NCBI RefSeq assembly: GCF_000165485.1
Contig: NC_014623.1
Location: 8,574,893-8,638,892, forward strand
DNA from: Stigmatella aurantiaca DW4/3-1
Lineage (GTDB): Bacteria > Myxococcota > Myxococcia > Myxococcales > Myxococcaceae
Direction of reading: 5' to 3'
Length of the DNA: 64,000 bases
Below the pieces are notes generated by a model, which was not told where the DNA came from, did not search any database, and saw only the letters and a list, made by a program, of their open reading frames with translations. The number at the start of each line of letters is the position of its first letter. Position 1 is the first letter of the stretch. Of the stretch, positions 15,304-56,002 are shown piece by piece. The translations under genes were made by a program, and so were the position numbers.

Positions 15304-15660
15304 GTGAAGTTGTGCTGTACAACCGCATTGCTGGTCGTCCTTACCGGCTGTGGCACTGCTTCTCAAGCGGTACGCCTAGACACGGGCCAGTCCAGCATCA
15401 TTGTCTTTACGCCACATTCCGGCGCCGGACCGGTCACGCTGGACGACGATGAATCCGAGAAGACCAGGGAGCTGTGCTGAACGAGATGATTGAGGCGTTC
15501 AAAGACATGACCGACCCCCACGCCATGGTCGCGTCAGGCCGAGACGCCAATAGGTATCCGTCTCGCGGCAGTCGGGGAAGTTGAGACGGTCACCTTATCT
15601 CCCGAAAGCTTGACCCTCACCCTCGCGCCAGGTGCAGTTGCCATGGCTGCGAATACACGG
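15304..15660 (+). pseudogene. Collapsed SitA5-like lipoprotein toxin gene
   Basis: Starts as a normal lipoprotein from GTG 15304, with AGGAGG upstream, signal MKLCCTTALLVVLTGC, then ASQAVRLDTGQSSIIVFTP. This parallels the opening of the intact toxin at 52453 (APVVRLDTGHGEPITYTP), but the frame stops after 58 residues at 15480. A second piece, roughly bases 15546-15660 in another frame, reads LTLAPGAVAMAANTRGA and matches the intact toxin's GLAPSAVAMAARDPRG region. The central hydrophobic part and the whole C-terminal toxin domain are missing. It is therefore a deletion-and-frameshift remnant of the same SIT toxin scaffold. The remaining 58-residue lipoprotein could still be made. Confidence 0.72.
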
Positions 15661-48247: not shown

Positions 48248-49717
48248 ATGAGCAGGCAGCCACGGGTTCCGCTGCCTCGCAGGGTGTCCACCGCCGAGGG
48301 AGTCCACGCCCCATCATCACCCCATTCAGCCCCCCCCCGCTTGGCGCTACGCTCCCAGCGCGTGAGCCCTGCCCCTGTCCTTCCCGATGCAGAAGTGGGT
48401 CCCTGGCGTGTGCGGAGTCTGCGCGGCCAAGGGTCCTATGGGGTCGTCTACCAGGTCGAGTCCGTGGAGAACGGCAAGGCGGGTCCCTTCGCCCTGAAAC
48501 TGGCGCTCTATGCAGGGGATCCGCGCTTCGAGCGGGAGGGGGAGTTGCTCTCGCGCCTGCGCCACCCGAATGTTCCCAGGCTGCGCGCCCGAGGCGGATG
48601 GGAACCGAGAGGGGGCGGTCTGTTCCCGTACCTCGTCATGGATTGGGTAGAAGGCATACCCCTCTATGAGTGGGCCACGCCATACGCCCTCACCTCCCGG
48701 CAGGTGCTGTGGATCCTGGCCCAAGTGGCCAGGGCGCTGGAGGCCACCCATGCCGTGGGCGGAGTGCACCGGGACGTCAAGGGCGACAACATCCTGATCC
48801 AACCCCATGGCCGGGCCGTGCTGATGGACTTCGGCTCGGGGAATTACCAGGGCGCACCGGTGCTCACGCGGCACCTCCCACCGCCGGGCACGCCTGAGTA
48901 CTACAGCCCCGAGTCGCTGCGCTTTCAGTGGGAACACCGGCACCACCCCCTGGCGCGCTACGAAGCCCAACCCTCGGATGACGTGTACGCGCTGGGGGTG
49001 ACGGCCTACCGCCTCGTGACCGGGAAATATCCCGAGGCCCTCGACATGGAGCTGACCGCGGAAGGCTTCCGGCCCATTCCACCCAAGTGGGTGCCGCCTC
49101 AATCGGACGAGGTGAACCTGTGCCCGGAGTTGGCGGAGCTCATTCAACGGATGCTCTCCCAGGATCCCTCGTCACGGGGGAGCGCGCGGGAAATGGCACG
49201 AGCGCTCGAACGGGCAGCGAAGACGGCGCGAGCCTCTGCGGATCAGCCCATTCACCCCCGCTCGGCCGCGTCACCCTTCGTGGGCGCGCCGCCGTTCACG
49301 CCCGCCCATCGAATCCTTTCGACAAGGCCTGCGTTGGCAGTGGCCCTGGGCGTGTGTTTGGGCATTGGGGTTTGGTGGGCAGGGCGTCCATCCAGAGAGG
49401 GCACTCCAGACCCCGAGTTCCAAGAAGCACAGGATGGTGGCGTGGTGGGCCTCGCGGACGCTGGGCTTGAAACCTCTGAAGGGCAGTCGCTCCACGCTCC
49501 AATGCGCTGGGAGATCGGCCGCGACATGCCCAAGAAACCCCTCGCGGGACAGCGCCGACCACCTTGTGGAAAACGTGAACTCGAGATCAACGGAGGGTGC
49601 TGGATTCATGACGAGGGAAGGACTCCTCCCTGCGGTGACGAGCTGGCCGAGTGGAAGAATGGCTGTTACTGGCCCCTTTTGAAGTTCCCCCTCCCCGCCA
49701 CCTCGGACACCCCGTAG
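48248..49717 (+). CDS. Ser/Thr protein kinase with membrane anchor and Cys-rich exported tail (paralogue)
   Basis: A 489-residue kinase closely similar in layout to the one at 19587. GQGSYGVVY, Lys in FALKLALY, FEREGELL, HRDVKGDN (His174) and DFGSG are all present, so it should be active. One membrane helix follows the kinase (ALAVALGVCLGIGVWW). The exported tail repeats the four-cysteine pattern: GQRRPPC, GGCW, PPCG, CYWP and TSD near the end. A GTG at 48362 is a possible later start, aligning better with the sister gene; no start has a strong ribosome site. It is divergent from the GAF kinase. Confidence 0.86.
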   Translation: MSRQPRVPLPRRVSTAEGVHAPSSPHSAPPRLALRSQRVSPAPVLPDAEVGPWRVRSLRGQGSYGVVYQVESVENGKAGPFALKLALYAGDPRFEREGELLSRLRHPNVPRLRARGGWEPRGGGLFPYLVMDWVEGIPLYEWATPYALTSRQVLWILAQVARALEATHAVGGVHRDVKGDNILIQPHGRAVLMDFGSGNYQGAPVLTRHLPPPGTPEYYSPESLRFQWEHRHHPLARYEAQPSDDVYALGVTAYRLVTGKYPEALDMELTAEGFRPIPPKWVPPQSDEVNLCPELAELIQRMLSQDPSSRGSAREMARALERAAKTARASADQPIHPRSAASPFVGAPPFTPAHRILSTRPALAVALGVCLGIGVWWAGRPSREGTPDPEFQEAQDGGVVGLADAGLETSEGQSLHAPMRWEIGRDMPKKPLAGQRRPPCGKRELEINGGCWIHDEGRTPPCGDELAEWKNGCYWPLLKFPLPATSDTP

Positions 49718-49744
49718 ACACCTTCCTCAGAGTGACAATCGAAC

Positions 49745-50665
49745 TCAGATGCCCATCATCCAATCCCAGTAAAGCGGCTGGCATGAGAAGGGTCCTTGCT
49801 CCCAACTGCGGCTACAGTGATAGCCCTCGCCACATGCTTCAGGCGGACCCGCAGGGTCGCAGGCGGGCAGGCAATGCCAGCCGTCGCAGACTTTCCCAGC
49901 GCCGCAGAGAGGCTTGCCTTCGCCGCACGGCTCGACACACTCCATCCATACCTTGCCAGGAAACGCTGGCTCCCTAGCCACATGACACTCGAGGCCATCC
50001 GGGCAAGAGGCCTGTCGGCACTGCGGGCCATACACCTGCGCGCATATCGAGGCGCCCTCCTCGAACGGAATGCATTGCTGATCCGCAGGGCATCCGCGCG
50101 CTTTGCATGTGGGCAGACACAGGGGTTGGGGAAGGGTATCCGCGCAGAGGAAACCCTCGGGGCAACGCTCGCTGTCACCCAGATAGCATGGCCGGGCACA
50201 CCATGCGTGCTCGCGGCCACCGCACAGCAATCCAGCTGCACAGGCGCTCCGCTTGTCATCCGGAAGCTCGATGCACCCCTCGCCTTCCTGGCGCTCGCCT
50301 ACGGGGATGCAGCGGCGTACAGCGGGTCCACCGCCCCAGGTGACCAGGATGCGGCAGACCTCGTCCTCCAGACATTGCTCATCCTTCACGCATTCACTGT
50401 CGGTGCGGGTGGACCGTAAACGACGGCCGTCAAACAAGCAGCCCAACGGAGCTTCGCACGCGCCCCCTGGAGCGCATCTTCGGCCATACGTCACCAGTTG
50501 CATGCGCCGCTCGTCAGTCAGGATGGGACTGATGCGCACCCCGGAGCGCGCGTCCATTGAAACCTCTGGCCTGAGCCCTCCCCACAACAGCAGAAACAGT
50601 GGCAACGGCAAGAGCACGCCCAAGACAACAGCACCCCCTTTGTGCCAGCAGCTCCTTCTCGGCAT
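49745..50665 (-). CDS. Cys-rich exported protein with EGF/disintegrin-like repeats
   Basis: A 306-residue protein starting MPRRSCWHKGGAVVLGVLLP with a long N-terminal hydrophobic anchor (LPLPLFLLLWGGL). The rest contains about 34 cysteines in repeated short modules of the form CPxGxxC, CxxxCxxxGC and GCPADQQC, for example RCPEGFLC, SCPDGLEC, LCGAGKVCDGWHC and ACGEGYHC. These look like extracellular disulphide-rich repeats common in myxobacterial surface proteins. No catalytic residues are evident. GGAGGA lies upstream of the ATG. It sits 115 bp downstream of the annotated end of the GntR regulator on the same strand and may be its target. Function unknown. Confidence 0.75.
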   Translation of the reverse strand: MPRRSCWHKGGAVVLGVLLPLPLFLLLWGGLRPEVSMDARSGVRISPILTDERRMQLVTYGRRCAPGGACEAPLGCLFDGRRLRSTRTDSECVKDEQCLEDEVCRILVTWGGGPAVRRCIPVGERQEGEGCIELPDDKRSACAAGLLCGGREHAWCARPCYLGDSERCPEGFLCADTLPQPLCLPTCKARGCPADQQCIPFEEGASICAQVYGPQCRQASCPDGLECHVAREPAFPGKVWMECVEPCGEGKPLCGAGKVCDGWHCLPACDPAGPPEACGEGYHCSRSWEQGPFSCQPLYWDWMMGI

Positions 50666-50780
50666 TTACGGCGGTCCTCCACACTGGACACCTCCGCGCC
50701 GGGCGCCCCGCCTACCAGAGGGTCGTGTGAGTCAGGGGAGGGAACCTCGGGTGGGGGTCCACCCGTGGGCGGCCGTTGGC

Positions 50781-51626
50781 TCAAACCTGTAGGGCAAGCA
50801 GACAGGGTGGGACCCTTCTCCTCCGACAACCTCTCCGGGGCATCCTCCTGCTCCGGTGTGGGGTGAGAGGCGGCTGTGTCTGCGCACAGTGGGGGCCGTG
50901 ACGACTCCCTGGATTCCTGCGGCGGTGGAAGGCTGGCCAGCAGGTGCTCATCGCTGGCCTGGAGGCGGGCCACTCCCGGCGCAGCGACTGCGCGTCCTTG
51001 GCGGCCAGGGAATGCATCGCACACAGTGCCCACTGCCGAGTGGCCTGCCCATTCAGGTGCGGCCTCAGCCGCCGAGCCATTCCTCGGTACGCGCGCTCTA
51101 GCGACTGCAACAGCAGCGCCTGTCCGGGACGGTCCACCGCGCGGGCGGCTTGCCTCAGCAACTCGAACTCCAACTCCGCCCACCTGCCGGGGTTGTCGTC
51201 CCAGCGGGCCGCCTCCGCCAACTCGAAGCACAGGCCTGCCAGCGTGGCCAAGTCCCTGGCAGAGGCTTGCTGGCAACTCGCCGCCAGCAACTCCACCGCC
51301 GTCTCTCGCTTGAGGGCCAGAAAACCCTCCAGCAGCCTCCGCCTCTCCGGATGTGCGGCGCCCGGGCCCTCCAGCACCACCCCCAGGTTCTCCAGGGTCA
51401 CCGCCCCCTCCAAGGGCAGGACTCGACTGCGGCGGCCCGGGCGCTGCTCTATCAACTCTCTGGCCGCCAAGCGCTTCAGCGCTTCACGCACGGTGCTGCG
51501 GGAGAGGCCGTAGCGCTTGGCCAGAGTGTTTTCCGAGGGAAGAAATCCGTCCTGGGGCAGCAGGCCTTGGGAAATCATCCGCTCCAGGTCCTGCTCCACT
51601 CGCCCGACGAGCCCCCACCCTTCCAT
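50781..51626 (-). CDS. GntR/FadR-family transcriptional regulator (likely frameshift near the 3' end)
   Basis: A regulator with an N-terminal winged helix: LVGRVEQDLERMI, LPSENTLAKRYGLSRSTVRE, ALKRLAARELIEQRPGRRSRV, then a helical FCD-type effector domain (residues ~100-205). As read, the frame ends after 281 residues with an Arg- and Pro-rich tail. In the neighbouring frame, from about base 51000, more protein-like sequence continues the domain: ARLQASDEHLLASLPPPQES and then an acidic Pro-rich stretch. A one- or two-base shift near 51000 would join them, so the native product probably has a different tail. A dyad at 51641-51666 near the start may be its own operator. Confidence 0.72.
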   Translation of the reverse strand: MEGWGLVGRVEQDLERMISQGLLPQDGFLPSENTLAKRYGLSRSTVREALKRLAARELIEQRPGRRSRVLPLEGAVTLENLGVVLEGPGAAHPERRRLLEGFLALKRETAVELLAASCQQASARDLATLAGLCFELAEAARWDDNPGRWAELEFELLRQAARAVDRPGQALLLQSLERAYRGMARRLRPHLNGQATRQWALCAMHSLAAKDAQSLRREWPASRPAMSTCWPAFHRRRNPGSRHGPHCAQTQPPLTPHRSRRMPRRGCRRRRVPPCLLALQV

Positions 51627-51640
51627 GTCCGTCCCCCTCC

Positions 51641-51666
51641 TGGTTTCAGGCAGGGCTATTAAACCA
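51641..51666. promoter_or_regulatory. Dyad upstream of the GntR gene
   Basis: TGGTTT-N14-AAACCA lies 15-40 bp before the GntR start. GntR/FadR regulators often bind such two-fold sites with TGGT/ACCA half-sites near their own promoters. The half-sites are short, so this is tentative. Confidence 0.35.
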
Positions 51667-51729
51667 CCTGGGGCTGACAGGGTGGGGAGAGCTTGCCCCG
51701 CTTGGGGGACTCTCCCTCACTTCTCCTGG

Positions 51730-52372
51730 ATGACGCCGCCGATGACCGGCAAGACCGACTGGGAGCCAATCCGAGCACTGGCGCGGCGCGTGTTGGAGCA
51801 GGGCAAGCCCCCTGGACTAGACGGACGAAGTGCAAACCCTGCTGCGGCGTTCCGCGCGGGAGGTGGCAACCCCCGCCAGAAGGCCCTCCGCAGTCTGCCC
51901 ACCGCGACGGCCCTGCTCCGGAAGCTCAGAAAGCACATCCGGGACGGTTCACAGCGGCTGACGGATGCCAATCTCCGAGCCGACCGCCTGCGAGATATCG
52001 GCGACTGGAAGGGAGCACGTGAAAAGTTCTCGGAGGGTGCTCGCCGTCGAAGTCGTGCCGCTCTACCGCAGGCACGCCAAGAATGCGCTGGCCAGCCTCA
52101 CCCGGTTCCAGAAGGTTGCGACGAGTGGGCGGGTGGATCCGAAACCGTCCGAGCACTCTCAGCTCTTGATCCTTCTGCACCGCCTCGATCTGGATCAGGG
52201 AAAGCCCCTGAACCTCACCCTGGGGATGCGCGCCTTCCTACGCCATGCCGCCTCGGAAGTGGCCATCAGCAAGGCTGAGACGAAAGAAGCTCTGGCGAGT
52301 CCCGATACGGACGACCTCGAAAGGACTCGCCAGCCGACGTATCTCTGCGCGAGAGCCTCGTCATTCACGTGA
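51730..52372 (+). pseudogene. DUSAM-domain protein gene, frameshifted
   Basis: DUSAM (duplicated in Stigmatella and Myxococcus) proteins have two copies of a short helical domain. Here the pieces are MTGKTDWEPIRALARRVLEQ GK, then in another frame DEVQTLLRRSAREVA, then back in the first LRSLPTATALLRKLRKHIRD GSQ, and finally in a third AVEVVPLYRRHAKNALASL followed by the second copy LILLHRLDLDQGKPLNL with AASEVAISKAETKEAL. Three frame changes are needed to read it through. It ends just before the toxin gene at 52453. Its job in other species is unknown. Confidence 0.7.
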
Positions 52373-52452
52373 GCCCCACAAGGAGAATGTCAGACTGGCA
52401 TGTTACTCCCAGACTTCATATCCCGTGCGTGGGACAAGGTACGGAGGTCTGC

Positions 52453-53817
52453 ATGAAGTGGCATTGGGGGGGAGTGCTGCTGTTGGCGAATCTTTGGGCA
52501 GGCTGTGCGACTGCACCGGTGGTGCGCCTGGACACAGGCCATGGAGAGCCCATCACCTACACGCCACCGAAAGACATCGAGCCCATTGAGATTGACGATG
52601 GTGAATTTCAGACGGTGATGACCCTGCTTGTGCTGGACATGCGCTTCGCGATCCGTCCCGAAGAGGAGAGGCCCCCACGCGTCCGTCTCGCCTCGTGGGA
52701 CTCTGAGCCACACCCCCAAGGAAGGGACTATGGGGCATGGTGCTCTCGGCAAGACAATCCAGGCGAGTGCCTCTCATTGCTGGAGGACGGCTTTGCTTTC
52801 TTGGATGCCAAGGCTCGGCGAAAGATGGCGCTATCCTTCGCCTGGGACGGCGTATGGAGCGGCGTGCAAGGTGCTGTCAAGGAGGTTGTCAATCCCTTGG
52901 CGCTCAAGGCGATGATTACCTCGGCGATGGCCGCATACATGCTTTTGGCCTTGGCGCCAGAACCCGTGACCAAACTCGTTGCCATCGCGCTGACGACCTA
53001 CATCATCGCGTACATCGGATTGGACTCATTCTCCAACCTCGCGCAAGGATGGCAGCGGCTCTCTGTGGATTCAGAGAAAGCGCTCTCGTTCGAGGAACTG
53101 GAGGACGCAGGGCACCGGTTCGGGCGGGTGATGGGAGCGAATGGGGCGAGAGTCCTCATCCTGGCACTGACAGCGGCCTTGGGGGGAGGTGCCACCAACA
53201 TGGTTTCGAAAGGCCCCATGCTCCCGGGCTTCGCGAGGGCGGTGCTGGCCACCGAAACCAATGTGGGCTTCCAGATGTCCGCAGCGATGACTGGCGGTGT
53301 TCGTTCCATTTCCATGAGTGAAGGCGCCCTGACTGTAGGACTTGCCCCCAGCGCAGTCGCCATGGCAGCCCGAGACCCCAGAGGCCAGAGTGCGGCGCAG
53401 ACAGGCAATTCAACTTCAGCACAGCTCTTCGAAAATCAACTGCCAGAGCGACTCTCTTCTGAATTGGAGATCGCTCAGCAGTTAGGGGTCAAACCAGTCA
53501 GTGTGGACTCGGCTGGATTCACGCGCTATGCGAGCACGGATCGGATCAAGTGGGTTGTCACCGAAGAAGGTCAGTTGCGGATCATTCCACACACATGGCA
53601 CCAAACAGAGATCTCGCATGCCGTGGCCAGCGGAGGCCGCCCCGTGCTGGCCGCCGGGGAAGCAGAACTGGCCATCCATGGCTCCACGCGCCTCGGTATC
53701 GAGATCACTTCTCGCAGTGGCCATTATCTGAATGGGTCTTCCAAGGCTGTGAATGATAAGGTCCTGGAAACCGGGCGGAAGGCGTTCGCCCGATTCGGCA
53801 TTACTTTCCCTCCTTGA
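52453..53817 (+). CDS. SitA5-scaffold lipoprotein polymorphic toxin
   Basis: A 454-residue lipoprotein toxin candidate. Start MKWHWGGVLLLANLWAGC follows GGAGG at five bases and has a textbook lipobox (Cys18). The N-terminal scaffold APVVRLDTGHGEPITYTP and GECLSLLEDG are those of the SitA5 group. Two hydrophobic regions (about 153-200 and 233-248) and AVAMAARDPRGQ (about 300) follow. The C-terminal ~135 residues, expected to be the toxin, read GQLRIIPHT, HQTEISHAVASGGRPVLAAG, GIEITSRSGHYL and ARFGITF. I do not recognise a nuclease such as AHH. In the known system SitA passes between cells by TraA-dependent outer-membrane exchange. Confidence 0.78.
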   Translation: MKWHWGGVLLLANLWAGCATAPVVRLDTGHGEPITYTPPKDIEPIEIDDGEFQTVMTLLVLDMRFAIRPEEERPPRVRLASWDSEPHPQGRDYGAWCSRQDNPGECLSLLEDGFAFLDAKARRKMALSFAWDGVWSGVQGAVKEVVNPLALKAMITSAMAAYMLLALAPEPVTKLVAIALTTYIIAYIGLDSFSNLAQGWQRLSVDSEKALSFEELEDAGHRFGRVMGANGARVLILALTAALGGGATNMVSKGPMLPGFARAVLATETNVGFQMSAAMTGGVRSISMSEGALTVGLAPSAVAMAARDPRGQSAAQTGNSTSAQLFENQLPERLSSELEIAQQLGVKPVSVDSAGFTRYASTDRIKWVVTEEGQLRIIPHTWHQTEISHAVASGGRPVLAAGEAELAIHGSTRLGIEITSRSGHYLNGSSKAVNDKVLETGRKAFARFGITFPP

Positions 53818-53826
53818 CGCTGATCC

Positions 53827-54372
53827 ATGGAACCTAAGCCCTCCCTCTTACAAACAGTCCTGGAATGGCCGCTCCCTCGGGTGAGGGCATGGCTCGATGG
53901 GCTCTCCATCGGCGAGCCCGTGGACGGCGCCCCCTTTCACTGGGATGGCTTCGCCTTCACCGCCGCATCCAGGGCGAGAGAAGAGCGGAGTCTTCCCTGG
54001 GCGCACATCGCCCTTCTGGTGTATGGGGTGCTCGCGGAACGCCCGCCCACCCGAGACACACACTCCCTCATGCTCTCGGCCATGAGCCTGCGAGCATGGA
54101 TGATCAAGGAACTGGGCGCCCAGGAAGGTGACGCCGTCCTGGACACAGACATCCTCTTCGCGTGGTTCCAGAGCTTGGCCACCCTTCCCATCGAGGAAGC
54201 GGCCAGGCTGGTGTCCTCGGAAAACTGGCATACCCTTCCCATCGAGACGCTTCTCCAACTGCGCCGCATCAAGAGCGCGCTCAATCTCCTGTCCCCTCTT
54301 TCGGAAACAGGGATCGTGCAGAAGCACCCTGAGCTGAACGGCTGGCTACAGCTCAGAAGCCATCTCCCGTGA
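53827..54372 (+). CDS. Putative cognate immunity protein of the SitA-like toxin
   Basis: A 181-residue cytoplasmic protein starting MEPKPSLLQTVLEWPLPRVR, nine bases after the toxin stop, so co-transcribed. It is predicted to be mostly helical, with conserved-looking WLDGLSIGEPVDGAPF and HWDGFAFTAAS near the N-terminus. No signal or membrane segment is seen, which suits an immunity protein that neutralises a toxin in the cytoplasm. I recognise no family; it is unlike the double-CXXCG SitI6 or the remnant at 15.6 kb. The immunity role is inferred from its place directly behind the toxin, as in all known sitA-sitI pairs. Confidence 0.68.
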   Translation: MEPKPSLLQTVLEWPLPRVRAWLDGLSIGEPVDGAPFHWDGFAFTAASRAREERSLPWAHIALLVYGVLAERPPTRDTHSLMLSAMSLRAWMIKELGAQEGDAVLDTDILFAWFQSLATLPIEEAARLVSSENWHTLPIETLLQLRRIKSALNLLSPLSETGIVQKHPELNGWLQLRSHLP

Positions 54373-54386
54373 GGGTTTGGGTGACT

Positions 54387-55379
54387 TCAGGATTCGTCCG
54401 GCGGCCCTGAAGCGGGGCTTGGGCCGTTCAGGGCCGCCATCTGCATGCCCACCTCATGGAGACGCCGCCGCAAGGACAGGGGTTCGAGCACCTCGATGCC
54501 GCCCCCCAGCCCGGCGAGCTGCTCAGCCGCCACATCCTCTCCCTCCAGTTGGAGTTCCACCGTTCGCCACCCCTCCGCATCGGGTGCTCCCGCCTCCTCC
54601 AGCATGCGGCGGACGGCATCATGCGGAATCACCGTTCTCAGGAGGGCCTGCGCGTGTGGCGACAGACGCGCGCGGCAGCGGTACGTCAGCAAGGAACGGT
54701 CGAACGCCACCGAGGACTCGGCCCACCAAGCGGCCAGATCGAAGTCCGCGGGGCGGGTAAATGTCTCGGCCCTCGCCTCGGCCCGGTGGATCCGGCTGAT
54801 CCGGTAGGTCCTCAGAGACTGCTCATGCCTCGCCACCAGGTACCAGGTGCCCGCCTTGAGCACGAGGCCGAACGGATCCACACGTCGACGCTTGGGCGGA
54901 GCGCCGTACTGAAGATCGAGCCGGCGCCCTTCCCAGACAGCCTCGGCCACCGCCGGCAGGGCGTCCAGGGACTCGCTCCGGGAAAACCAGCCGGGCGCAT
55001 CGAGCAGGAACCGCTCCCGGATCCGGTGGGCCCGGCCCCGCAGCTCCTTGGGGAGCGTGGCATCCACCTTGGCCCGCGCGCTGACGGCCACCGTGGCCAG
55101 GCCCAGGTCCGCCATGGCCTGCGGCGCGCCGAACAGGAACAGGGCGTTCGCCTCGTCGGCGGTCAGCCCGTCGAGCCGGGTGCGCCAACCCTCCATCAGC
55201 CGGATGCCCCCATGCGGGCCCGGCTCCGTCCACACGGGCACCCCCGCCGCCATCAGCGCCGCCACGTCCCGGTAGAGCGTGCGAACGGAGACTTCCAGTT
55301 CCTCGGCGAGTTCCGAGGCCTTGGCGGTTCCCCGCCGCTGGAGCACGAGGAGCAAGGCGAGCAGGCGGCTGGATTTCAT
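54387..55379 (-). CDS. WYL-domain HTH transcriptional regulator (YafY/DeoR-like)
   Basis: A 330-residue regulator starting MKSSRLLALLLVLQRRGTAK. The N-terminal winged helix reads ASELAEELEVSVRTLYRDVAAL and PVWTEPGPHGGI. A central WYL domain has RVDPFGLVLKAGTWYLVARH, and a C-terminal part has RLSPHAQALL and the final arginine-rich helix. WYL domains bind nucleic acids or nucleotides and switch the DNA-binding activity. The divergent RibD-like reductase gene lies 65 bp away, and between them is a 25-bp dyad, so the regulator probably controls both. An ATG 24 codons upstream exists, but homology starts at MKSSR. Confidence 0.88.
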   Translation of the reverse strand: MKSSRLLALLLVLQRRGTAKASELAEELEVSVRTLYRDVAALMAAGVPVWTEPGPHGGIRLMEGWRTRLDGLTADEANALFLFGAPQAMADLGLATVAVSARAKVDATLPKELRGRAHRIRERFLLDAPGWFSRSESLDALPAVAEAVWEGRRLDLQYGAPPKRRRVDPFGLVLKAGTWYLVARHEQSLRTYRISRIHRAEARAETFTRPADFDLAAWWAESSVAFDRSLLTYRCRARLSPHAQALLRTVIPHDAVRRMLEEAGAPDAEGWRTVELQLEGEDVAAEQLAGLGGGIEVLEPLSLRRRLHEVGMQMAALNGPSPASGPPDES

Positions 55380-55400
55380 CTCCCCGCACCCTGCCAGAAA

Positions 55401-55425
55401 ATCCCTGACAGGAACTGTCAGGGAT
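55401..55425. promoter_or_regulatory. Operator dyad between the WYL regulator and RibD-like gene
   Basis: ATCCCTGACAG (55401-55411), GAA, CTGTCAGGGAT (55415-55425): a perfect 11-bp inverted repeat. It sits 22 bp before the WYL start on one side and 20 bp before the reductase start on the other. CTGACAG-type dyads recur ahead of YafY-like WYL regulators. It very probably is the shared operator. Confidence 0.72.
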
Positions 55426-55444
55426 GCGTGGGCATCTTTCGCCC

Positions 55445-56002
55445 ATGACACGCACCCAATATTACGTAGCGGCCAGCATCGATGGGTACATCGCCGACAG
55501 CGCCGGGAAGCTGGACTGGCTCTTCCAGTTCAACGACACCCCAGGCTTGACCGAGCACTACCAAGCGTTCATCGACAGCGTGGGCCCCCTGGCCATGGGC
55601 GCCGCCACCTATGAGTTCATCCTCGGCGAAAATCAGCCCTGGCCCTATGCGGACCGGCCCACCTGGGTCTTCACCCATCGCCCGCTGCCCGCCATCCCTG
55701 GAGCGAACCTCCGCTTCACCACCGAGGACGTGAGCGCCGTCCACGCCCAGATGGTGGAGGCCGCCGCGGGGAAGAACCTCTGGCTCATCGGCGGCGGCAA
55801 CCTCGTCGCGCAGTTCGTGCGGCAGGGGCTGCTGGACGAAATCCTCCTGAGCGTCGTTCCCGTTGTCCTCGGGGGAGGAATCCCGCTGCTGCCCGCGGCC
55901 CTCACGCGCCCGCTCGAGCTCACCGGGCTCACCCGGTTCGACCGGGGCATGGTCGAGTTGCGGTACACGCTCCCCTCCCGCGCCCCGGCGCCCAAAGGCT
56001 GA
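55445..56002 (+). CDS. RibD C-terminal / dihydrofolate-reductase-like protein
   Basis: A 185-residue reductase starting MTRTQYYVAASIDGYIADS. It shows the RibD_C/DHFR-like fold: YYVAASIDGYIA, DWLFQF, MGAATYEFIL, LWLIGGGNLVAQFVRQGLLD, ILLSVVPVVLGGGIPLL. The GGGNL loop binds the nicotinamide cofactor. Members reduce deaminated riboflavin precursors or other substrates, and the stand-alone form is often linked to WYL regulators with no known target. The shared dyad and divergent layout suggest control by the WYL protein. It ends three bases before the convergent acyl-CoA synthetase stop. Confidence 0.85.
   Translation: MTRTQYYVAASIDGYIADSAGKLDWLFQFNDTPGLTEHYQAFIDSVGPLAMGAATYEFILGENQPWPYADRPTWVFTHRPLPAIPGANLRFTTEDVSAVHAQMVEAAAGKNLWLIGGGNLVAQFVRQGLLDEILLSVVPVVLGGGIPLLPAALTRPLELTGLTRFDRGMVELRYTLPSRAPAPKG

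What the first reader, a model, noticed from the sequence alone, without database searches (positions are those of the whole stretch)
52453..54372. Intact SitA5-scaffold toxin with unfamiliar effector domain and immunity gene
The lipoprotein has the SIT scaffold (lipobox, RLDTGHGEP, hydrophobic middle, AVAMAARDPRG), but its C-terminal ~135 residues (EISHAV, GGRPVLAAGE, SGHYL, GITF) are not the AHH nuclease I would expect for the group. The neighbouring 181-residue gene fits the immunity position and has no family I recognise. Together they could be an undescribed toxin-immunity type that moves between cells by outer-membrane exchange.
Basis: partly seen in the sequence, partly recalled or inferred. 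Interest (0 to 1): 0.85.

Follow-up and report, generated by a model that had tools for sequence, protein, structure and literature searches.

The report
SitA5 toxin with EDA39C-like effector domain
A myxobacterial lipoprotein, probably passed between touching cells, ends in a toxin domain that other toxin systems in several bacterial phyla also carry, followed by a likely protective gene; the toxin type was predicted in 2012, and I found no test of it and no entry in the family catalogues searched.

Summary
The pair is real and where stated. The 454-aa lipoprotein has a curated SitA5 escort domain (272.5 bits, cut-off 160). Its 136-residue C-terminal domain (CTD) and the 181-aa neighbour match no Pfam, NCBIfam or PADLOC family. 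CTD homologues end RHS, pretoxin-HINT and WXG100 proteins. A relative of the 181-aa protein lies directly downstream in 17 of 17 full-length SitA5-borne CTDs (195 genomes) and in 28 of 31 loci outside Myxococcaceae; most loci lacking it carry an unrelated cupin-like gene, a second candidate immunity family. Profile comparison ties the CTD to proteins with an HHSSFLAGG…SGHY pattern, which fits Tox-EDA39C, predicted in 2012 as a two-histidine, RNase A-like toxin shared with plants. New here: its SitA5 carriage, two candidate immunity families, AlphaFold models without a PDB match. RNase activity, immunity and transfer by outer-membrane exchange are inferred. Side finding: a 1.05-kb GntR-carrying repeat next door has 26 further near-full copies in this genome.

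The parts
52443..52447 (+). ribosome-binding site GGAGG of the sitA gene
   Evidence: read from sequence
52453..53817 (+). sitA5 gene, 454-aa lipoprotein polymorphic toxin
   Evidence: ORF; NCBIfam NF050093 272.5 bits, cut-off 160
52453..52506 (+). lipoprotein signal peptide, lipobox LWAGC with Cys18
   Evidence: read from sequence; lipobox rule recalled
52483..53193 (+). SitA5 escort domain (residues 11-247)
   Evidence: hmmscan NCBIfam
53407..53814 (+). C-terminal toxin domain (residues 319-454), EDA39C-like
   Evidence: homologues as C-terminal domains of other toxin scaffolds; hhalign with EDA39C-like set 98.2%; AlphaFold pLDDT 87.5
53617..53619 (+). codon of His389 (His71 of the CTD), first candidate catalytic histidine
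   Evidence: invariant in 37 of 37 rows of A3; matching His in 12 of 12 rows of A4
53722..53724 (+). codon of His424 (His106 of the CTD) in S-G-H-Y, second candidate catalytic histidine
   Evidence: invariant in 37 of 37 rows of A3; matching His in 12 of 12 rows of A4
53827..54372 (+). candidate sitI immunity gene, 181 aa, predicted nearly all-helical
   Evidence: linked homologue in 17 of 17 full-length SitA5-borne CTD loci and 28 of 31 loci outside Myxococcaceae; AlphaFold pLDDT 92.3

Best explanation
This is a SitA5-family toxin-immunity operon. The lipoprotein is anchored in the outer membrane, handed to a neighbouring cell by outer-membrane exchange, and its escort domain carries the C-terminal domain towards the cytoplasm (inferred from the SitA5 literature). 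The C-terminal domain is a divergent member of the Tox-EDA39C superfamily. It probably cleaves RNA without a metal, using His389 and His424 (CTD His71 and His106), perhaps with Lys366 (CTD Lys48) (inferred from conservation and a 2012 prediction). The 181-aa helical protein stays in the producer's cytoplasm and probably blocks the domain by binding it (inferred from linkage). Shown here: SitA5 scaffold, domain modularity, toxin-partner linkage across phyla, homology to EDA39C-like sequences. Inferred: delivery, RNase activity, immunity by binding.
For: SitA5 escort 272.5 bits over a cut-off of 160; 15 of 25 SitA5 matches in this genome are over cut-off, with several CTD types. Same CTD at the ends of RHS (L044, L077), RHS+PT-HINT (L049, L050), PT-HINT (L051, L056) and WXG100 (L055) proteins; L043 had no family (8 scanned); also of an E. 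coli Rhs. Linked 181-aa family: 17/17 full-length SitA5-borne CTDs and 3/3 CTD fragments, 28/31 loci outside Myxococcaceae; the iterated profile hit, at E<1e-3, only ORFs behind the CTD (incl. tandem copies of L037), next best E 0.088, among + strand ORFs of 43 loci. Tandem and orphan copies. The toxin tree separates by partner type with one change, 0 of 500 shuffles as low. hhalign to the EDA39C-like set: prob 98.2, E 2.8e-14; control 0.3. Pattern H, Sx[HS]Y and the RNase A-like prediction are in PMC3482391.
Against: No activity was measured, here or in any paper found (one search finds only PMC3482391 for 'EDA39C'). Position 107 is Tyr or Phe in this clade, not always the Tyr of the published motif, and Lys48 is not kept in the EDA39C-like set. 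That this set is Tox-EDA39C rests on motif and description; Zhang's sequence file is not held. No solved structure matches the fold. Zhang lists Imm-SuFu as partner, not this family. The branch that separates the partner types on the toxin tree is weak (49/83). Distances of the partner correlate more with the escort domain (r 0.74) than with the CTD (r 0.56), and escort with CTD hardly (r 0.12), so CTD and partner do not look like a clean two-part module (17 loci).
Confidence: 0.68

Rival explanations
1. Same toxin-immunity pair and delivery, but the EDA39C-like domain is not an RNase: it modifies or cleaves something else (protein, nucleotide or cofactor) through the two histidines.
For: RNase function is a prediction by analogy to RNase A; no solved structure is similar; the zinc-ribbon relatives keep only the first histidine, so the fold may have roles other than RNase.
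Against: The abstract of PMC8546572 calls SitA C-termini polymorphic nucleases that target the cytoplasm; two invariant histidines, one Lys and one Ser fit metal-independent RNA cleavage (inference).
Confidence: 0.27
2. The CTD is one more BECR-fold (EndoU/colicin D/barnase-like) RNase and the resemblance to EDA39C is superficial.
For: Alpha+beta with two beta-hairpins, helices and a K/H/H/S set as in several BECR toxins (BECR residues).
Against: hhalign to EDA39C-like sequences spans 92 columns including both motifs; no BECR structure was among the matches listed, which does not exclude it.
Confidence: 0.08
3. The pair is not delivered by outer-membrane exchange in this strain: it is a silent or decaying SitA locus.
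For: 10 of 25 SitA5 matches in the genome are below the cut-off, several of them short fragments; TraA and expression were not tested.
Against: ORF, ribosome-binding site, lipobox, candidate catalytic residues and partner gene are all intact.
Confidence: 0.12

Closest known systems
SitA5 family polymorphic toxins (NCBIfam NF050093; PMC8546572, passages read)
   Same: Lipoprotein signal, escort domain over the curated cut-off, C-terminal toxin, immunity-type gene next to it
   Different: CTD is neither HNH nor AHH, the two SitA5 toxins tested in that paper; whether this CTD is among the 40 SitA toxin domains counted in its ref. 14 could not be checked (the PNAS paper I looked up is not held)
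Tox-EDA39C (Zhang et al. 2012, PMC3482391; table rows and passages read)
   Same: Alpha+beta, one His in each half, H and S-x-H-Y pattern, attached to RHS and HINT; predicted RNase A-like
   Different: Clade of its own with an extra invariant Lys48 and Tyr or Phe after the second His; partners are a helical 181-aa family or a cupin-like family, not the Imm-SuFu listed there; occurs on SitA5 and in cyanobacteria, neither listed there
AHH nuclease (Pfam PF14412) of other SitA5 toxins
   Same: Same position behind the SitA5 escort domain, in the same genome
   Different: No match of this CTD to PF14412 at E<=1

Membership tests
SitA5 polymorphic toxin | SitA5 escort domain over NCBIfam cut-off | tested here: met
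   272.5 bits, cut-off 160
SitA5 polymorphic toxin | lipoprotein signal with lipobox cysteine | tested here: met
   LWAGC, Cys18, by eye on the sequence; Trp at -3 is unusual but allowed by the PROSITE rule as recalled
SitA5 polymorphic toxin | adjacent cognate immunity gene | tested here: met
   adjacent gene and its linkage in 17 of 17 full-length SitA5-borne CTDs; protection itself not testable here
SitA5 polymorphic toxin | TraA/TraB-dependent transfer and killing | not testable with these tools
   needs co-culture
SitA5 polymorphic toxin | traA present in the same genome | not tested
   no TraA query at hand
Tox-EDA39C | one conserved His in each half, H and Sx[HS]Y | tested here: met
   H71, S104 and H106 invariant in 37 of 37 rows; residue 107 is Tyr or Phe, so the last letter of the motif is met only in part
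Tox-EDA39C | sequence homology to the family | tested here: inconclusive
   hhalign 98.2% to 12 sequences that fit the description; Zhang's own sequences are not held, so that set is assigned by motif and recall
Tox-EDA39C | alpha+beta fold | tested here: met
   AlphaFold H-H-E-E-H-E-E-H, pLDDT 87.5
Tox-EDA39C | RNase activity (itself only predicted) | not testable with these tools
   needs biochemistry
AHH nuclease (PF14412) | match to the Pfam profile | tested here: not met
   no match at E<=1, whereas 3 of 9 paralogous CTDs scanned match strongly
BECR-fold RNase | BECR sheet topology | tested here: inconclusive
   no solved structure with Foldseek E<=0.001 or VIA Z>=5
Imm-SuFu (PF05076) | match to the profile by the partner gene | tested here: not met
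   PF05076 is not among the 5 families matched by any of 21 family members at E<=1; model is nearly all helix

The most novel reading that the evidence does not exclude
The CTD and its plant, fungal and bacterial EDA39C relatives form an enzyme superfamily with a fold not yet solved and an activity not yet known (not necessarily RNase). In bacteria it is neutralised by two unrelated immunity families that split the toxin tree. The SitA5 pair would then give a genetically tractable way to find what the EDA39/IQM-type domain does in plants.
Probability: 0.27. Interest if true: 0.78.

Novelty: new variant of a known kind. Interest (0 to 1): 0.55.

Why it matters
Tox-EDA39C was predicted in 2012 from sequence, is shared with plants, fungi and many bacteria, and in the library held here no later paper names it. 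The CTD clade has no convincing Pfam or NCBIfam match (best E 0.019 and 0.094 among 19 members; 37 members in Pfam). A small, intact toxin-partner pair on a scaffold whose domains could be swapped in M. xanthus (PMC8546572, passages) makes activity, target and immunity directly testable. Two alternative candidate immunity families for one toxin also allow a clean study of how immunity is replaced.

Tried and rejected
AHH or another catalogued nuclease for the CTD: rejected. Solved-structure relatives by sequence: searches found none, only chance matches (best E 0.35). Foldseek against the PDB for the CTD: best E 0.43, TM at most 0.35 in the 50 rows shown; VIA best Z 3.0 (72 residues, 4.2 A). 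For the immunity model: best Foldseek E 1.4, best Z 8.4 to designed or TPR-like helical repeats, not informative. Foldseek against viral models gave two unnamed proteins with prob 1.00, TM 0.44-0.46 of the query (G8DGH9, E5EQ39); no names held, not followed. No phage-record relative by tblastn; no relative in viral contigs for A3 or for one EDA39C-like protein. L033 dropped as a low-complexity chance hit (E 0.032 against the A3 profile). No Rfam match at gathering score in 49500-55500. Mantel tests on 17 loci: CTD-partner r 0.56 (p 0.0002), escort-CTD 0.12 (p 0.07), escort-partner 0.74 (p 0.0002); partial CTD-partner given escort 0.71, CTD-escort given partner -0.54; they do not show that CTD and partner move as one block. 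Papers: passages of PMC5562445 and PMC8546572; section 5 parts 2, 3 and 5 and passages of PMC3482391; search listings otherwise.

Full report
WHAT IS THERE. Two genes in the same direction: a 454-aa lipoprotein (52453-53817) and, 9 nt later, a 181-aa protein (53827-54372). The lipoprotein matches the curated SitA5 escort model over residues 11-247 (272.5 bits, cut-off 160). The last 136 residues and the partner match nothing in Pfam at E<=1, and only the escort model is found in NCBIfam. The genes are lower in GC (0.598 and 0.625) than the window (0.685). Of six congeners searched, three (G095, G096, G097) keep the right flank nearly in full. In these three, a 12-kb stretch holding the right flank (from about 54420) and a left flank has neither gene; 7-9 kb of other DNA lies between. 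So the pair sits in a variable locus.

THE SCAFFOLD IS MODULAR. The genome has 25 matches to the escort model, 15 over the cut-off. I scanned 9 of the 18 other SitA5 ORFs or fragments listed: three C-termini are AHH, two Tox-REase-5, one a sub-threshold HNH_2; three have no toxin family. The CTD search of the whole genome finds only this one gene. PMC8546572 (passages) states that SitA5 toxin domains are polymorphic and modular, and that three of four escort-toxin chimeras with SitA3 worked. An unfamiliar CTD on SitA5 is therefore expected in kind.

THE CTD IS A TOXIN DOMAIN USED BY MANY SYSTEMS. In 195 genomes of the window's phylum, 21 have a match at E<=1e-3, 24 places in all: 17 full-length SitA5-borne copies including the window's, three short C-terminal pieces (L029, L035, L036), three copies not on SitA5 (L030 and L031, and L032 in a 104-aa frame) and one chance hit (L033). 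L030 and L031 end 2263- and 2564-aa frames, the CTD directly behind sequence that in L050, the named record of L030, is a PT-HINT domain. Of 8 carriers scanned with Pfam, RHS repeats (L044, L049, L050, L077), PT-HINT (L049, L050, L051, L056) or WXG100 (L055) lie ahead of the CTD; L043 showed no family. The longest carrier is a 7095-aa frame on Oscillatoria plasmid pOSC7112.01. In E. coli it is the end of an Rhs protein in strains MEI003 and 64A, in MEI003 behind a DcrB-related gene; in 1 of 5426 E. coli genomes a single place covers 80% or more of the 1200-base query. It is rare: profile A3 matches 6 of 396 Actinomycetota, 6 of 291 Cyanobacteriota and 2 of 398 Pseudomonadota genomes at E<=1e-3, each count including the centre genome, which was chosen because it holds the domain; apart from the centres only one match is strong (G823), the rest are distant relatives. 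Not all first-look candidates were scored, so these are lower bounds.

THE PARTNER. A homologue of the 181-aa protein lies beside the CTD in 17 of 17 full-length SitA5-borne copies and all three pieces, and in none of L030-L033. In the 31 other loci an iterated profile finds it directly downstream in 28 (all but L043, L045, L049; in L066 and L072 incomplete). Searched against the + strand frames of at least 60 residues in 43 loci, it hit at E<1e-3 only frames behind the CTD (including tandem copies in L037); the next best was E 0.088. Tandem copies occur in L034 (G129) and L037 (G113), and orphan copies, some of them partial, in genomes without the CTD (G074, G097, G099, G100, G114). Of 21 genomes with a CTD match and 23 with a partner match, 18 have both; in one of these (G123) they are not adjacent. 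AlphaFold gives a nearly all-helical protein (pLDDT 92.3, pTM 0.87) without a specific solved relative.

A SECOND PARTNER. L043, L045 and L050 carry instead a 97-115-aa gene; L045 and L050 match Cupin_3/Cupin_2 under the cut-offs, L043 and the E. coli gene match no cupin family. The four were aligned as one family: the first three match each other by blastp at E 1.9e-11 or better, the E. coli gene matches L050 at E 1e-5. Their profile finds the same gene behind L030 (same contig as L050), L031 (two copies) and L032. L049 has neither. On the CTD tree (39 rows) the six cupin-type rows form one side of a branch with one change of partner, 0 of 500 shuffles as low, but the branch is weak (49/83). 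Residue 49 next to invariant Lys48 is Phe or Tyr in five of six cupin-type toxins and Trp in all 32 of the other type.

WHAT THE CTD IS. Profile A3 reaches distant proteins with the pattern HHSSFLAGG...AGE...SGHYRP; one of these found further members. Profile-profile comparison of A3 with 12 of them gives probability 98.2, E 2.8e-14 over 92 columns; the immunity profile as a negative control gives 0.3. With the narrower A1 profile it is 94.5, E 7.8e-8. Zhang et al. 2012 describe Tox-EDA39C as 'alpha+beta; H, Sx[HS]Y', found with RHS and HINT and in plants, fungi and other eukaryotes, with two conserved histidines reminiscent of RNase A (PMC3482391). EDA39 is, as I recall, the Arabidopsis protein IQM1, whose C-terminal pattern I recall as the same; no call shows this. 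In our CTDs H71, S104 and H106 are invariant in 37 of 37, as is K48; the two His are also kept in 12 of 12 EDA39C-like rows, K48 is not. The AlphaFold model (pLDDT 87.5, pTM 0.83) is H-H-E-E-H-E-E-H and matches no solved structure.

HOW IT LIKELY WORKS. Export as an outer-membrane lipoprotein, exchange with a neighbour, escort-dependent entry (PMC8546572 implicates ExbB1 for SitA5), RNA cleavage by the two-histidine domain, and neutralisation by the helical partner in cells that have it. Only the sequence relations are shown here; every functional step is inferred.

WHAT IS NEW. The scaffold and the superfamily are known in kind. Not found in print by searches for 'EDA39C', 'EDA39' with 'toxin', or 'SitA5' with 'toxin': EDA39C-like toxins on SitA, these two partner families, or a test of the activity. 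The PNAS 2019 survey of SitA families (recalled) is not held, so this CTD may already be in its list.

Noticed in passing
window 50689-51740: A 1.05-kb dispersed repeat with sharp ends, carrying a GntR-type regulator ORF (PF00392). Besides the window copy, 26 near-full copies at 83-89% identity are listed in this genome and no near-full copy in six congeners. Five other copies examined share further flanking sequence with each other but not with the window copy, so the mobile unit may be larger. One copy and some partial ones lie within about 5 kb of other SitA5 matches.
   Followed up: partly
window 15328-15465: A fragment of a second SitA5 escort domain (34.9 bits, below cut-off) in the same window.
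   Followed up: no
L089, L090, L093, L095: Frames of 154-199 residues with a zinc ribbon, from the Actinomycetota and Cyanobacteriota surveys, related to the CTD (hhalign 97.4) with SEHxACAGG and NQSTGYCP or NQSTGFCP: the second histidine is lost. No Pfam family over its cut-off.
   Followed up: partly
L037:6403-9001: Tandem array of up to five copies or pieces of the 181-aa family behind one SitA5 toxin in Myxococcus dinghuensis.
   Followed up: no
L029, L035, L036: Short C-terminal pieces of the CTD (61-75 matched residues) without scaffold, each still followed by the partner gene: displaced toxin modules.
   Followed up: no
L040 (BNCN01000012.1): Record named Comamonas sp. KCTC 72670 holds a SitA5 locus on a contig of the same length as that of genome G125, which genome search places in the window's own family: probably mislabelled.
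   Followed up: no
L076:6001-6757 and L079: E. coli Rhs tip with this CTD and a cupin-like partner, found in two strains (64A, MEI003); the 64A record is filed as a plasmid of 4.9 Mb.
   Followed up: partly
L086 and L138: EDA39C-like proteins with LQRQLGNRT or LQRSVGNEAV stretches; I recall such motifs from extracellular contractile injection system cargo.
   Followed up: no
L096: Large Pseudomonadota frame (776 residues shown) with a distant form of the pattern, GHPALVAGGQARIAGEM...NHSGRY.
   Followed up: no
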